DNA of 64,000 nt. Source: Heterotrichella gracilis. Taxonomy: Eukaryota > Sar > Xanthophyceae > Tribonematales > Xanthonemataceae. A program made the translations under genes and the position numbers. Below are positions 31,150-48,600 of this stretch, in pieces. The notes under the pieces are model-generated. The model was not told the DNA's origin, made no database searches, and worked only from the letters and a program-made list of their open reading frames with translations. Each line of letters starts with the position of its first letter. The stretch's first letter is position 1. The stretch covers positions 42,687 through 106,686 of the forward strand of contig JAULBX010010545.1 in the NCBI GenBank assembly GCA_032358255.1, written 5' to 3'.

Positions 31150-34100
31150 ATGCCGCCCGCCAGCCTAAACACCCCACTCCCCACCACCACCACTGCCACC
31201 CCCACCACCCACCACCAGCTCACCAAAGCGCTTGCATGGGGCGCCTCGGTGGCAGCGGCTGTGGCCCTGGTGGGGACTGGGTGGTGGGTACTGGGGCGGA
31301 AGCGCAGGCTCATGATGCGGGCAGCAGCTGGGGGAAATGACAAGGCTGCAGATGTTGCTGTGGCTACTGACGAACCAATGGGTATGTTCAGGGCCGCTGC
31401 ATTAGGGCTGAGGGCTTCAGGTATTACGTTTCACTTGCGCCTTCCGACTGCCACCCTGCAAGCCCGCTGGGTAGGGTTTGGGGTAATACTTAGTTGAGTG
31501 GAAGGGTTTTCAATGTGCTTCGTGCCACCCCAGTGTGGCCAACTGGTGGTGGGACTGGGCCACAGGCGCGTGCTTGTGGTGGCTGTGGCTGTGGCTGTGG
31601 CTGTGCTAGGGCTAGGGCACAGTTGATGCATGTGTGTGTCAGCCCTGTCACCACCTGGCGGGTCCATGCACTCTGGCAACACGGGCAAGACATCCCCCCC
31701 TGCCACAGGCCTTTATGGCACAAGCTTTGGCTGTGAGAAATCCATGCCCAGTCACACCCCAAAGCACCCACTTTGCACCCACGGCCACCCCACCACACCC
31801 CTGCACACCCCAGCCCTGCACCGATGAACACCACCCCCACCCCCTTGCAGACCCCCCGGGCTACCACGTCAAGGCCATCACCCCCCCGCCCTCCACCCTC
31901 ACCGCCTTTGACAGCGATACACTGCTAGCGAGGTGAGGGTGAACCCTTAGCTAGGGTGTGTCTAGGTTACAGGCCCCTCAAGTCACAATCAAGGGTTCCA
32001 ATCATATCTTGGGGCCCCCTCAAAATAATGCATCGCATTACCGGATAGTAAGGTCCATTTTGCACCTCTCCCCCACAAACGCCAGGACCACCCACAAAAT
32101 ACCAACACCATCTACGTCGCCTCCCCCGCCCACCCACTCCCACCCCCCGCAGCTCCAACCGCCCGCCCTACCCCCGCCGTGCAAAGGATGTTGCTGCACT
32201 CAAGCAGCAGCTGGCGGACGCATCCCAGGAGATGCTGTGGAGCAGCTGCATCATCGACCCTGAGCAGGTTGAGATTGTGAAGAACAACAACGGGGAGGAC
32301 ACCCTGCTGGGCGAGGGGGCATACGGCAAGGTGGGTTAGAGTTTGGAGCAAAGCGGAAGCCCAGCATTTGAAGCACCGTTGAATCACTAATGTTGCGAGC
32401 AGGGTGTGTAGGCGTTTTTGGGAAGAGTGGCTGTGTCTTGGCCCCAAGCAGATCTAGTTCTTGAAGGTTGCTGTGCAAATTGGAAGGAGAAAATCCCCCA
32501 AACACCCACTCCCCCACCGCCACACCCACCACTCCCCCCAACCTGCAGGTGTACCGGGGCCGCCTCAACGGCCGCCTCCCCATCGCCATCAAGCTCCTCA
32601 CGGGGGCCGCCACCGCCTCGCCCTCCCAGCGCCACGCCTTCTGCCAGGAGATTGTGCTGCTGCGGCAGCTGCAGTCGCCCTATGTGGTGCAGTTCCTGGG
32701 TGTGGCCATGGAATTGGGCAGCAACAGGCCGATGCTGGTCACTGAGCTGATGCAAGGGGGGTGCCTGCAGGGGGCGATTGAGAAGGGCATTGGGCGGTGG
32801 GATGTCAGGTGGGTGGTGTTGAAAACGAGGGCTTATTGGGTGCAAGATCTGTGATGTGACATCTGCAAGCGCTATCTTAACCCTCACAACCACCCTCGCA
32901 TTGCCCCACCCTTGCACTGCCCCTGACACTGCATTGCCTGCCACACTACACTGCTGCCCATTGTCCCCCACACTGCACTGCCCCCACTGCCCCCGCATTG
33001 CACTCCACTCCTAGCCCCCCTCCCTTCTATGGGTATGAAACCTATAACTCATTCAGACTCCCGCATCCCGCAGGGGCCCCCGCATCGCCATGGACATCGC
33101 CCTGGGCCTCCACTTCCTCCACTCCCGCCACACCATCCATTTCGACATGAAGTCCTCAAATGTGCTCCTCACAGCCACCGCGGGGGCCAAAATCGCGGAC
33201 GTGGGGCTCGCCCGGGTGGCAAACAACACCCTGGTGACCGTGGAAATGCACGGCACATTTGCCTACATGGCGCCCGAGCTCTTTGACCAGCACAAGTGCA
33301 ACGAGAAGGTGGATGTGTATGCGTTTGGGGTCATCCTATGGGAGATGATCACCGGGGGGGTGCCCAGGAGGGGCCACATCAGGGACATACGGTGCGCTGG
33401 GATACCCTAGATCCTAACACTAGCTAAACCCTAAACCCTATCCAGCGCATTGCGTTTGGGGTCAATTTAATGGAGATGATCACTGGGGGGGTGCCCAGGA
33501 GGGGCCACATCAGGGACATACGGTGCGTGGCAAACCTTAGATCCTAACCCTAGCTAAACCCTAAACCCTATTCAGCGCATTGCGTTTGGGGTCAATTTAA
33601 TGGAGATGATCACCGGGGGGGTGCCCAGGAGGGGCCACATCAGGGACATACGGTGCGCTGGCAAACCCTACCATTAGCATAATTGTTATTGTTATTAGTA
33701 ACAATATTACAAGCTGACAATCATACTTTGGAAACCTGTAATCGGACCGTTGCTGCTAGTTCCAACCCAATTGAGCCCTGAATGCTTGTGTGCCTGAAGA
33801 GTGCTGCCAGACTTCATCACCAATACCCTAACCCCCAATTTCAAACCCTGGTCCGCTCATGCAGGGTGCCTGAGGAGTGTTGCCAGACTGCCAAGGACCT
33901 GGTCTGGGCCTGCCTGGACAAAGACGCTGCCATGCGCCCCTCAGCGGGCCAAATCATTGAGACCCTGCAGAAGTTTGCGCGCCGCTCGCCCCCCGTCTCT
34001 ATCAACATGGACAGGTCCGAAAGCCCTATCAAGGGTTTCCCAGCAGAAGTGGCGCCAGCTGGGTCGGCGCCACACGCCGTTGTGCAGGTGGGATTTGCGA

Positions 34101-34335
34101 CCTAAATTCCTTGATTTCTGCACCCCACACCCTGGTTAGTGCTTTTCTAACCCGGGACCCTGTTCTCTTGGAGAGCTTCTTAAAAATGTACATAATATCC
34201 CTCATGCCATGCAGGTGGCTGACAGTTGGGGCAGTGGCGGCTCCCAGGGGGTGGTGGAGGGCACTGCCACACCTGGAATGGCTGAGGGGGATGGCGTGTG
34301 GATGAGCGGATCGTCCGCAGGTGGATCGTCTGCAG
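31150..34335 (+). CDS. Membrane-anchored TKL protein kinase C
   Basis: Exons 31150?-31381, 31851-31932, 32153-32330, 32549-32808, 33074-33391, 33865-34087, then 34215-34320 or -34335. The N-terminus is short and Thr/Pro-rich, followed by one membrane segment (GASVAAAVALVGTGWWVLG) and a basic stop-transfer stretch (RKRRLMMR). The kinase is complete: LGEGAYGK-VYRG, IAIK, FCQEIVLL (alpha-C Glu), HFDMKSSNVLL, DVGLAR, APELF, DVYAFGVILWEM and the C-lobe RPSAGQ. HFD replaces HRD and DVG replaces DFG, as in kinases A and B. The intron before VPEECC has the same position and phase as in A and B, so all three share ancestry. The start is uncertain: the ORF is open upstream of the ATG at 31150 and an acceptor-like site lies near 31099, so an ectodomain exon could be missing. 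Without the last splice the protein would stop at 34105. The last exon joins the globin exon in phase (see findings). Confidence 0.8.
31576..31606. repeat. GGCTGT hexanucleotide microsatellite
   Basis: Four to five copies of GGCTGT in the first intron of kinase C. Confidence 0.85.
33452..33660 (+). repeat. Two tandem copies of the kinase C exon 33074-33391 donor end
   Basis: The last ~75 bp of the exon (from GCGTTTGGGGTC at 33321, coding AFGVILWEMITGG to HIRDIR) recurs at 33452 and 33582, a period of about 130 bp. Each copy is preceded by CTAAACCCTAAACCCTA and keeps an open frame with I-L-W changed to N-L-M. They follow an AG and precede a GT, so they could be cryptic exons. Confidence 0.9.
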
Positions 34336-36553
34336 GTGGGTTTCAACTCCTCTTTCTTCAGTTTTAGATCCCAGTTTTGCCTATCTGCACTTCCTCAGAG
34401 GTGGGTTTCAGGGTCCAGGATCCAGGGTCCAGTGTCAGGGTCCATTGGCAAGGTCAGGAGGAATTCAAAAGTAGTGATACTAGGGGCTAAAACCTGCTGG
34501 CTGCCATCATGCCATGAGCAGGGCAAAGCCCATCCTAAGGAACAGGGGGAACAAATGTTGTCACCAAGGTGCCAAGATGTGGCTCAAATCTTGAAATGTG
34601 AATGCGAATCCATGTGATGTGTGAACCATCATCCTACTGTGTGCATTGCAATGCGAGCCCTGGTGCTGCAGTGATGTATGCAGTCCTCCTGGTAAGGGTT
34701 GGCAAGCTGCCTCAACGGGGAGGGTGGCAATGTCAGGGCAAGGGTTAGGGCTCAGGTGGGGTTCCCTGGCGGAAATAGCTTCAGGGCTTGCCGTCACTCC
34801 TGACCCATCACCACTGAGTGCCCTCCCCCCTCTTTCCCCCTCCCTCGCCCTTGGCCCCTGTGCAAGTCCCCCATCTCCCACCCAGATTTCTTGCCCCCCC
34901 TTCAGGCTCCCACCGCACCACCTCCCTTGTTGAGCGAATTGGGGGTCTGGCCACTGTTGCTGCGGTGGTGGCGGACACATACAACCAAGCGATTGGCGAC
35001 CCCAGGCTGGTGCACTTCTTTGATGGAGTGGATATGCACAGCGCTGTGAGCAACCAGGTAGAGTAAACCCTATAAAACCTTAACAACTAAATCGTAAAGT
35101 GGTGCAAGTTTCTAATGGGGTGGATGTGCACAGCACTGTAAGCAGCAAGGTAAGGGCAAGTGGGCCAACCCCAAATCCTAAAGTGTAAACCATCCACAGG
35201 GTTTGCAACAGGGTGGGCATGCACAGCGTGAGCAACCAGGGAAGGGCAAATGGCCAGCCCGAAACCCTAAACCCTTACATTAGACGAGAGCGTGCACGCA
35301 GGCACATGGCCCCACCGTATCACCTCAACCCTGAACCGGGTAAAGCATGCGCACAGACAATGGGTCAACCGCCCTGATCCCTGTGGGTGGTGTGGTGGCT
35401 TTCACTTACAAGCAGGCGCTTGGTGACCCCACGGGGGTGCATCCCTTCCATTGGGTGGACGTGCGTAGCCAGGAAGAGTATTTTGGCATAAGGGGGCATG
35501 CGGTCAATTAAAACTTGATTTTGAACCTCGAGCTTGCGTGGGGCAGTGGTCTTTGTCAAGAAGGACAGGAGTACCTAGGGTTGCAAACGGCCACTGGCTT
35601 TTGTTGGAGCAGGGGGGTGGCATGCGTTTTAGCATTACAGCCAAAAAAGCAACCACTTTCCCCTCCATCTCTCGCCCCTCTGACACCCTCTTACGCCCCC
35701 TCCCTCCCCCCCCACAGGTCCAATTCATGGCCACCATTTTCGAGGGGCCCGCCGCCTACCGGGGCCAGGATCCGGTGGCGCAATACACCCCCCTCATCCG
35801 TGCTATGGGCCTAAATCAGGACCACTGGGTGATTGTGGCCAGCTACATCATGCTGGCATTGGAGGCGCAGGGGGTGCCGCAGGTGAGTGCATAAGATATG
35901 TCGATAAATGAAAATGGAGGGGAAAACTATTGGCATGGGTTTTTATTAAAATGCAAGAAATTGCCAAGCCAAATCTGTACATTCAGTGACTCTGGAAGCG
36001 ATAAAAAATGTAACTTGATAGGTTGGTAGTAATATCCATAATAGTACCAATACTGACACGCATCATTTCCCTCTTGCAGAAGCTGGTAGGCGAGGTCATG
36101 GACAACTTTGGCGCCACCAAGTGCCTGTTCCCAGAGCCCAAGCTGGCGCCCCTGCCCATCCTAGGGGCCACCGCCTCCCTCGAGAACAGCGACTCCACCA
36201 CCACCACCACCACCACCACCGTCACCACCGTCACCACCACCACTACCACCACCAGCAGCAGCAGCACCACCAGCAGCGGCAGCAGCGGCAACAGATCAGG
36301 GGATGCGCCACAGGTGGACGCTGGTGTGCAGGCACCCAAGGAAGCGCTTGAGGTGGTGGGTGGGTCAAGGGACGGTACCATAGGCGAGGAGGTGGGGAAG
36401 GAAGGGGGGGATAACAGGAGCCAGGGAAGCCAAACCATGGGGTCCTGGGGTGATCAATTTACGTATGGGGACAGCACTAATCATGGGGCAGGGGACGTCT
36501 TTCCGCCTTCCCCTTTCAGCTATGTCCATGCCTCATTTTCTGGGTGCATGTGA
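34209..36553 (+). CDS. Truncated (2/2) haemoglobin-like domain, possibly the C-terminus of kinase C
   Basis: Globin exons 34906-35057, 35718-35882 and 36080-36553, phase-continuous to TGA at 36551. Class-I-like 2/2 globin features: VERIGGLATVAAVVADTYN (helices A-B with the B10-type Tyr), DPRLVHFFDGVDM (CD region, FF pair), FMATIFEGPAAYRG, NQDHWVIVASY and the C-terminal GVPQKLVGEVMDNF. The segment DPVAQYTPLI aligns with the usual helix-F segment where the haem-binding His sits; no His is present there. After the globin fold the last exon adds a Thr/Ser-rich low-complexity tail from an ACC/AGC microsatellite, then an unrecognised Gly/Glu-rich end. The first globin exon has no ATG and its frame is closed upstream by TGA at 34815, so it must be spliced to 34215-34320/34335. 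That exon is either the end of kinase C, or the start of an independent gene using the in-frame ATG at 34209. Confidence 0.8.
35101..35241 (+). repeat. Degenerate copies of the first globin exon end
   Basis: The exon end coding FFDGVDMHSAVSNQ (about 35010-35057) is mirrored at 35101-35151 and 35199-35241, with a fainter remnant near 35450, all in the next intron. Confidence 0.75.
36194..36285 (+). repeat. ACC/AGC microsatellite inside the globin last exon
   Basis: Runs of ACC with GTC interruptions, then AGC. In frame they encode a Thr-rich then Ser-rich tract after the globin fold. Confidence 0.9.
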
Positions 36554-45692: not shown

Positions 45693-48600
45693 CTAGAACT
45701 CGTAGTATGGGCCAATCCCCTTGACGCCCAACCCGGGGATGCCAGTTGGCTTGCTGTCAGCCTGCAGAAAGCACGCAATGATTAGAGTGTGGACAATGCA
45801 CGTAGCAAGCAAGGCAATGGTAAGAGTGCGTACAGAACCCCGTTTGAATGCAACGGCAGGTTAAGAGGTATGGCAAAGGGCGGCCCCTGTGGATCTGCAC
45901 CACCCATGTACTTGACCAAGCAGGTTGGTGCATGCCTGCCAGCATGCACCCTGTGCCACCGTGGCTGCAAAGTACATGCCCTGTGGCAGGATTTCCAGGG
46001 AACCCCGGGGCTTGCCTCAGGTGTGCGCAGCTTGGAACACACAGGAAATGCAGCACTAAGATGCTACCACAAAGTTCCTGGCATTCCCAGGAGATTGGTG
46101 TGGGTCTCCATGGCACACTTGACAAGATGTTCGGTACACAATCACAATTGAAACAACAGCCCTTGCGCCGCGCACCTCTGAATCGCAGAAGTCTGCCGGC
46201 GCGTACACCACCACTGTGCGCGAGGGCGCATACACCTGGAAGGAGTGTGGCCTGCTGTCGTGGTTGCCCTCGGCGGTTGCGTGCACCGAGTTGTACTTCT
46301 TGCTGGCGTTCTCCCACCCGCCAAACGCACCCTCGTCGCTGCTCAGCACGATCTGCGCCACAGGATCCACCCAAACATCAGTACATATTATATACTTTTG
46401 CCTTTCCTTTCATCAATTAAGTTCTACATGCATGCCCGTTCAAGAATTAGGCAACTTTCATTCTCTATTCTATCATTGAGCTGCTCTTTAATATTCCTTT
46501 ACACGCAATTTCATGCAGCAATCTCCAATCAGCTTTTAACGGTAAAAGCAATGCTTCAAGAGCTTTTGGTTCTCTGTAACATGCCATTGCGCACAGTCTG
46601 AGATTGAGTAGAAAGAAACACAGTGTGGTAGGGCGCGGCTGCGGTGCGGTGCTGCGCACCTTGTATGGCCCTGGCTGGAAGCAGCCCACCCGGTAGTCCT
46701 GGTACGACTGCACTGGGTGGAAGTTGAACACAAATACCAGGTCGCCGCGCTCCAGCACGATGACCTTGTCGCCCTCGTTCATGCGGCTCACCCAGGTGTG
46801 GCTGGCGGCAACAAAGCCAAAGGCCTGCGCACACGCGGGAAGGGGTCGGAACTTAGGTGGCTGCAGGGTGTAGGGGTGCAGGTGCATGGGGCTTGCTAGA
46901 CAAGACAGATGCCTAACTTGCTCCCACCATCGGCTGACACACTGCTTCCAGCCACCGGCAAACCAACACTCCAAGCGCACAGCAAGGTGCCCAAAACGCA
47001 GGCGCTTATTATGCCACATGCAGCATAGATATGGATGTGTTGAGGGGATGCCATGGCACGAGTGACTGGATATTTGCCTCCACCCATTCCTACCTTGTCC
47101 AGGTGCATGATTGCGCGGTCGTAGGCTGCCATGTGCTTGTACCTCAGGTTGGGCGAGTCGCACAGGTCCCAGCGACGCCTGCAGGAAACATAAAAAAGGC
47201 GGGGATTAAAACAGCACCATAGGGTGTCCGCCGCAGCGACAGAAACATCAAGGTGAGAATAGCAGTGGACCTCAATTTGGCATCTCGTTTTAAAACGACA
47301 TGTAACTAAGATTGGGGACAACCTCCATTGCAGTCAGGTCTGGATATATAGGTCTAGGACTGCTGTCTGTTCCCAACACCCCAATGACCAGCCTACCGCC
47401 ATTTCCCCAAGAGCTGCCATGTTCATGCTGCATGTGCAGTAAATGGCACCATGCTGCTGTGGATGTCCAGGGAGTTGCTGGCATCACATTTGTATGTGAC
47501 ATTTGCCATTAAACATGTAGCCACCAGCCGCACAAGCGGCCCACACAAGCGGCCCATGATTTCCCCCTTGCACATCCCATACCACCACCATGACCACACC
47601 CGCCTGCACTTCTCCAGGGACCCGCCATTGCACACCCTTCCGCCGACCCCGCCGCCACCCCCACCCCCACCCCCACCACTACCACACCCACCTTCTCCAG
47701 CGGTCCGCCGTTTGCCCGGCGCCATGCTGCCGGTGGGTCCAAGAAAACCCACTGAGACCCCTCCCCCCTCTCCCCCCCCCAATCACCCGGCTAATGTGCC
47801 CCTACCGCATTGACCAGCCCAACAGATACCCCAACAGGTGCAGCTCAAGATGCAACCTGCGCACACCCACCTGCACTTCTCCAGGGACCCGCCGTTGCCT
47901 GGCACCATGCTGCCAGTGGATGGGTCCAGGGAGTCGTCGCGCGGGAAGTCGATCCACTCTGGGTGGCCAAACTCGTTGCCCATGAAGGTGAGGTAGGACT
48001 CGCCCCCCAGGGTCATGGTCAGCAGGCGGATCATCTTGTGCAGGGACACGCCGCGGTCAACCACGGGGTTGGAGGGGCTGTGGGAGGGGGTGGGGGGTGG
48101 TGTAAGGGGTGGGGATGGTGGTAGCAGGCAGGCTATTTGAATGCTGCCCCACAGTGGCAAGGAACTGCCAGAATCAGGGTTGCAAGTCGACCCAGCATGC
48201 TCTCCTGGTATGCAGCTGGAATGCACAACAAACCCAGTGGCCAAGCTTGGTGAGAGGGTCAACATGTGTGTGCAGCAGCAGGCACCGCATTGCACCACTG
48301 ATTTCTAAGTGTAAGTTTTCTAAGTTTCAGATGGCAGCAGACGAAAGTGAACAGAGTGCAGCGCTCTACTTTCTTTCTCTGAGTATCCCAGCGATGAGCA
48401 TCACAGTGATGGCGCAACCCCAGCCAACAACCATGCTACACAATGGCAATCACGCCCATTCAACCCCCAAATCCTGGACACTCACCCTCCTGCGCCCATG
48501 CCATCGTACATCTCCTTGTCCATGAGCCAGAAGGCAATGGTCTTGTCACCCACCAGCGCCTGCGCAAGGGGCCCAGCAGCCGGTCAGTGTGGGCCTAGAA

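What the first reader, a model, noticed from the sequence alone, without database searches (positions are those of the whole stretch)
31150..36553. Possible transmembrane kinase-globin fusion gene
The last kinase C exon (34215-34320 or -34335) ends with one spare G. The first globin exon (34906) needs exactly one base and lacks any ATG, with its frame closed by TGA at 34815. Joining them gives one continuous 734-codon reading frame: membrane segment, TKL kinase, linker, 2/2 globin. Only 103 bp separate the alternative kinase stop (34105) from the alternative globin ATG (34209), with no TGTAA poly(A) signal between, which is tight for two genes. A globin attached to a eukaryotic receptor-type kinase would suggest gas, redox or haem sensing.
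Basis: partly seen in the sequence, partly recalled or inferred. Interest (0 to 1): 0.85.

Follow-up and report, generated by a model that had tools for sequence, protein, structure and literature searches.

The report
Membrane kinase joined to a globin
This alga-like genome carries a gene that most likely makes one protein combining a membrane-anchored signalling kinase with a small haemoglobin-like domain; it has about nine sister genes of the same design, and the haemoglobin part of this copy has lost the residues that normally hold the iron-haem.

Summary
Ten exons with nine GT..AG introns (31150-36553) read as one 734-codon frame: membrane segment, TKL kinase, linker, group 1 truncated globin. 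The arrangement recurs: ten same-strand kinase-then-globin units were found in this genome, window included, with 1, 2 or about 6 globins each. In C150, C749 and C376 neighbouring globins share one open frame. Seven of ten first globin exons have no in-frame ATG upstream. All ten kinases lie on one side of a supported branch. One fused gene is therefore likelier than two, but no transcript was available. The gas/haem-sensing reading is weakened for this copy: proximal His F8 is Tyr and the Lys53 equivalent of THB1 is Asn, whereas 16 of 19 other tabulated domains of this genome keep His F8. Fusions of 2/2 haemoglobins to protein kinase, and tandem globins, are already mentioned in print (PMC7082302, passage seen). 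So this is a new variant of a known kind: an expanded family of membrane-type TKL kinases carrying one to about six globins, some apparently haem-free.

The parts
31150..31381 (+). exon A: start and a weakly hydrophobic membrane segment (about residues 24-48) followed by RKRR
   Evidence: best 19-residue hydropathy 1.55; three sister loci have a stronger segment before the kinase
31851..31932 (+). exon B: juxtamembrane
32153..32330 (+). exon C: juxtamembrane and glycine-rich loop of the kinase
32549..32808 (+). exon D: kinase N-lobe (IAIK lysine, helix C Glu)
33074..33391 (+). exon E: catalytic loop HFDMKSSN (non-RD), DVG, APE
33865..34087 (+). exon F: end of kinase C-lobe; phase-0 donor CAG|GTGGGA
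34215..34335 (+). exon G: Gly/Ser-rich linker (alternative end 34320)
   Evidence: coding score modest
34906..35057 (+). exon H: first part of group 1 truncated globin; no in-frame ATG upstream
35718..35882 (+). exon I: middle of globin; Tyr at proximal F8
36080..36553 (+). exon J: last globin helix and a Thr/Ser-rich tail to the stop
33451..33522 (+). intronic copy of the 3' end of exon E (92%)
33581..33652 (+). second intronic copy of the 3' end of exon E (93%)
35100..35144 (+). partial intronic copy of globin exon H (80%)
35381..35459 (+). partial intronic copy of globin exon H (72%)

Best explanation
The locus is one gene for a membrane-anchored protein: short N-terminus, membrane segment, cytosolic non-RD TKL kinase, flexible linker, and a C-terminal domain of the group 1 truncated globin family, followed by a low-complexity tail. 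It belongs to a local family of about ten kinase-globin genes with 1, 2 or about 6 globins. Shown by sequence: the open gene model, the recurrence, the domain identities, the residue changes. Inferred: that it is one transcript, that the membrane segment is real in this copy, and that the globin regulates the attached kinase from the cytosolic side. In sisters with intact axial ligands a haem-bound gas or redox signal could do this. The window copy has lost the proximal His and the distal Lys, so it most likely acts without haem (scaffold, dimerisation or other-ligand domain, as the non-haem globin of RsbR does; recalled), or less likely binds ferric haem through Tyr.
For: Open 734-codon model with nine GT..AG introns. 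Both Pfam domains above their cut-offs. Ten same-strand kinase-then-globin units: window, C272, C150, C749, C413, C427 (two), C376 (two), C277, about 0.4-1.5 kb from kinase end to first globin codon. No in-frame ATG upstream of the first globin exon in 7 of 10. In C272 only 179 nt lie between the kinase read-through stop and the opening of the globin frame. Neighbouring globins share one open frame in C150, C749 and C376. Signal-peptide-like start, membrane segment and kinase start share one open frame in C150. With the corrected label, the ten globin-linked kinases need 2 label changes on the kinase tree against 8.1 in shuffles (0 of 500 as low), all inside a 13-row set at 95/93 (near-copies help such a count). 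Window residues: F8 Tyr, E10 Asn.
Against: No transcript or peptide. A neighbouring gene pair could also be copied as a block. An ATG at 34209 offers a separate globin start. C749, C413 and C376a have in-frame ATGs upstream of their globins. In C277 the globin start is not clearly read, and an in-frame ATG lies just inside the part aligned. By the site rule no direct in-frame join existed for window, C272 and C427a; the window needs exon G, and for C272 and C427a I found joins by eye. The linker of the two near-duplicate C427 genes is poorly conserved. The window membrane segment is weak (1.55, below the 1.6 cut). Three kinases of the 13-row set showed no globin in about 3.2, 3.2 and 1.0 kb downstream (C392, C465, C198).
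Confidence: 0.82

Rival explanations
1. Two adjacent genes, a kinase ending at 34105 and a globin starting at 34209, duplicated together several times.
For: Stop and ATG exist in the right places. Neighbours can be copied as a block. Truncated globin genes without a detected kinase also exist in this genome, such as C556 with an in-frame ATG in its first exon.
Against: Spacing leaves 103 nt here and 179 nt in C272 for terminator, promoter and first exon. Seven of ten first globin exons lack an in-frame ATG upstream. Globin number varies while the order stays.
Confidence: 0.13
2. A fused gene whose globin half is decaying and has no function.
For: Both axial ligands changed; the longest end branch (0.82) of the 8 rows in its weakly supported group, though C413 and C427 globins are longer still; partial exon copies in introns.
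Against: Frame, splice sites and globin length intact over three exons; true-frame coding score of H, I and J1 clearly positive (0.24, 0.46, 0.61); TyrB10 and PheCD1 kept.
Confidence: 0.15
3. A haem-bound gas or redox sensor kinase.
For: 16 of 20 own-genome domains tabulated, window included, have His F8 and 8 of 20 have Lys at E10, as THB1 has.
Against: The window copy has Tyr at F8 and Asn at E10.
Confidence: 0.15

Closest known systems
2/2 haemoglobin domains fused to protein kinase, and multidomain truncated haemoglobins (one sentence in the Introduction of PMC7082302; its refs 16-19 seen only as citations)
   Same: a truncated globin and a protein kinase on one polypeptide; several globins on one polypeptide
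   Different: which kinases and organisms were meant could not be read; here a membrane-type TKL kinase, about ten genes, up to about six globins, and loss of haem ligands in some domains
Chlamydomonas THB1 (PDB 4xdi)
   Same: best solved match of the globin family profile (E 1.1e-36); TyrB10 and PheCD1
   Different: THB1 is a single domain with His77 and Lys53 (numbers recalled); the window domain has Tyr and Asn there
Chlamydomonas THB3 and THB5 (PMC7082302, passages seen)
   Same: THB3 lacks His F8; THB5 has four consecutive globins
   Different: no kinase is mentioned for them in those passages
Multi-globin chimeras of Guillardia theta (PMC4101818, passages seen)
   Same: six globin domains in two large proteins; one globin of that genome lacks His F8
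   Different: 3/3 globins with a putative cytochrome b5 N-terminus; the word kinase does not occur in that text
Bacterial globin-coupled sensors, including histidine kinases (recalled)
   Same: works-like comparison: globin domain next to a signalling output
   Different: there a 3/3 globin sits N-terminal; here a truncated globin sits C-terminal of a Ser/Thr/Tyr-type kinase
Receptor-like and other TKL kinases: SYMRK, TNNI3K, IRAK4, CTR1, BRI1, B-Raf
   Same: kinase domain
   Different: almost no outer domain here; the candidate sensor is the inner C-terminal globin

Membership tests
Group 1 truncated haemoglobin | sequence match to the truncated globin family | tested here: met
   PF01152 E 2.8e-9, 37.6 bits against cut-off 21 for the joined protein; profile of 18 domains hits THB1 at 1.1e-36
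Group 1 truncated haemoglobin | TyrB10 and PheCD1 | tested here: met
   Y and F (position names recalled, mapped on THB1)
Group 1 truncated haemoglobin | proximal histidine F8 | tested here: not met
   Tyr in the window; His in 16 of 20 own-genome domains. So a domain derived from the family, not filed as a haemoglobin
Group 1 truncated haemoglobin | haem binding and 2/2 fold | not testable with these tools
TKL protein kinase | kinase domain with catalytic Lys, Asp and metal-binding Asp | tested here: met
   PF07714 E 3.5e-45; IAIK, HFDMKSSN, DVG, APE by eye; of the 60 of 204 solved hits shown, all but the first (a chain labelled EGFR) are named as TKL-type kinases by recall of their class
Receptor-like membrane kinase | membrane segment before the kinase | tested here: inconclusive
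   window segment weak (1.55); clear segments in C150, C427a, C427b; no topology predictor was run
Kinase-truncated globin fusion | both domains on one transcript and polypeptide | tested here: inconclusive
   gene model and ten recurring units say yes; no cDNA or peptide
Bacterial globin-coupled sensor | N-terminal 3/3 globin followed by output domain | tested here: not met
   globin matches the truncated family and lies C-terminal of the kinase

The most novel reading that the evidence does not exclude
A receptor-kinase family that reads the cell interior with a string of globins: outer globins of the string keep haem ligands and sense a gas or redox signal, while the globin next to the kinase has lost its haem and became a transducer. 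In the three genes with about six globins the kinase-proximal globin has Val at F8, and the only globin of the window gene has Tyr there.
Probability: 0.3. Interest if true: 0.8.

Novelty: new variant of a known kind. Interest (0 to 1): 0.58.

Why it matters
Eukaryotic kinases wired directly to globins would make haem-based gas or redox signalling in algae testable on one polypeptide. The natural series in one genome (one, two or about six globins; haem ligands kept or lost) would let haem-dependent and haem-free regulation be compared within one family.

Tried and rejected
TGTAA as proof against two genes: 0 in nine gaps with 3.9 expected, but 1 in the tenth, C427b, and introns of these genes carry 10 in 13.5 kb, so only weak. 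Linker conservation between the two C427 genes: too diverged to help. External relatives: two scans of viral contigs (one kinase exon, one globin part) confirmed none; other eukaryote genomes could not be searched. Literature: nine searches listed no paper whose title or abstract start describes a membrane TKL kinase with globins; PMC7082302 states that kinase fusions are known. Of its refs 16-19, two (Hade 2017, Vinogradov 2011) were looked up and are not held; the other two were not looked up. The first labelling of kinase C427b as globin-free was wrong: one search found its globin (score 335, best of eight shuffled queries 60), and repeats the count with the right label. A first layout of overlapping loci assumed reversed pieces and clashed; one search set it right.

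Full report
The window is part of an unnamed 68.5 Mb genome in 903 contigs. Its intron-rich genes, an alpha-amylase C-terminal domain in a gene that looks like a starch branching enzyme (the latter by eye) and the closeness of its globins to Chlamydomonas THB1 fit a green alga, but the organism was not identified.

Observation. The coordinates in the finding check out. Exons A-J, 31150 to 36553, join through nine GT..AG introns into 734 codons. Pfam finds a kinase domain (residues 156-391) and a truncated-type globin domain (479-587) in the product. Without joining exons, the Bac_globin family did not reach E 0.001 in the window. A codon score trained on kinases of seven sister contigs favours the model frame in 11 of 11 exon segments, with exon G only modest.

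Recurrence. Searching the whole genome with the globin and with the kinase part (one search scored 90 of 435 candidates, so its list is a lower bound) showed hits of both on the same contigs. Most kinase introns and the two globin introns sit at the same places, mostly in the same phase. Globins without a detected kinase were C161, C556, C141 and C306; about 4.5 kb upstream were held for the first two and about 1.5 kb for the other two.

One gene or two. Seven of ten first globin exons have no in-frame ATG upstream: window, C272, C150, C427a, C427b, C376b, C277. The C277 globin start is uncertain, and an in-frame ATG lies just inside the aligned part. C749, C413 and C376a have such ATGs, with possible acceptors after them. 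In C272 only 179 nt separate the kinase read-through stop from the opening of the globin frame. By the site rule, direct in-frame joins exist in C150, C749, C413, C376a, C376b and C277 and not in window, C272 or C427a. In the window exon G mediates. For C272 and C427a phase-0 joins were found by eye in the printed DNA. One join in three would fit by chance, so this is support, not proof. In C150, C749 and C376 the end of one globin and the start of the next share one open frame, so arrays are single polypeptides at least there. In C150 one open frame carries a signal-peptide-like start, membrane segment and kinase start. The missing poly(A) signal is weak support.

Kinase tree. With the label corrected, the ten globin-linked kinases fall in a 13-row set at 95/93 and need 2 changes, against 8.1 in shuffles, 0 of 500 as low; the drawn root is only the midpoint. 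Two changes fit one gain and one loss. The other three rows, C392, C465 and C198, form one supported group (95/92) and showed no globin in about 3.2, 3.2 and 1.0 kb downstream. The 12 kinases outside scored 41 to 67 for a globin on the kinase strand in the held DNA, which reaches 0.6-1.3 kb downstream. Shuffled queries reached 60 and the weakest accepted first globin, C277, scored 136 to 151. The genome-wide search missed the C427b globin, so further misses are possible.

Haem. Against THB1, the window domain has Tyr at F8 and Asn at E10 (Lys53 of THB1; number recalled), while TyrB10 and PheCD1 are kept. Among 20 own-genome domains tabulated, F8 is His in 16, Tyr in the window, and Val in the kinase-proximal globins of C376a, C376b and C277. 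The table leaves out the C427b globin, two C376a globins and the C376b and C277 globins known only as hits; those of C427b and the two of C376a show His in the aligned place. So the window copy is probably not an ordinary haem sensor, while sisters may be.

Mechanism, inferred. Membrane anchoring is clear by hydropathy in C150, C427a and C427b and weak in the window (1.55). All ten kinases carry HFD in place of HRD, so all are non-RD. The globin would hang on the cytosolic side behind a flexible linker and regulate the kinase from within. Partial copies of exon H in the following intron and of a globin exon in C749 show how globin exons could multiply locally.

Known or new. PMC7082302 (Introduction passage) says that 2/2 haemoglobin domains fused to protein kinase, and several such domains on one polypeptide, had been found; it also reports THB3 without His F8 and THB5 with four globins. 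The cited sources could not be read here. PMC4101818 (passages) reports multi-globin chimeras in Guillardia theta. This case is therefore called a new variant of a known kind.

Noticed in passing
window 33398-33657: Two extra copies of the 3' end of kinase exon E with its donor site lie in the next intron (about 130-nt unit, the two copies 95% alike).
   Followed up: partly
window 35100-35459: Two partial copies of globin exon H lie in the following intron, a likely trace of globin duplication.
   Followed up: partly
window 15462-12575, minus strand, open tail to about 10883: A second TKL-like kinase (HLD loop) with a long low-complexity tail; a scan of the whole window found no other globin.
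   Followed up: partly
window 46465-47205, minus strand: Alpha-amylase C-terminal domain (E 8.1e-11); neighbouring open frames look like a starch branching enzyme by eye.
   Followed up: no
L048 and L050 (C150:42330-43090, minus strand): The kinase tail of the C150 sister gene carries about eight copies of a 13-residue repeat like FGRRDSNPRNDES before the globins.
   Followed up: no
C376 42006-52231 and 57991-67101: Two neighbouring kinase genes, each followed by about six globin domains; kinase-proximal globin with Val at F8 in both.
   Followed up: partly
C392, C465, C198 kinases: A supported subgroup of the same kinase set without a detected globin, possibly a secondary loss.
   Followed up: partly
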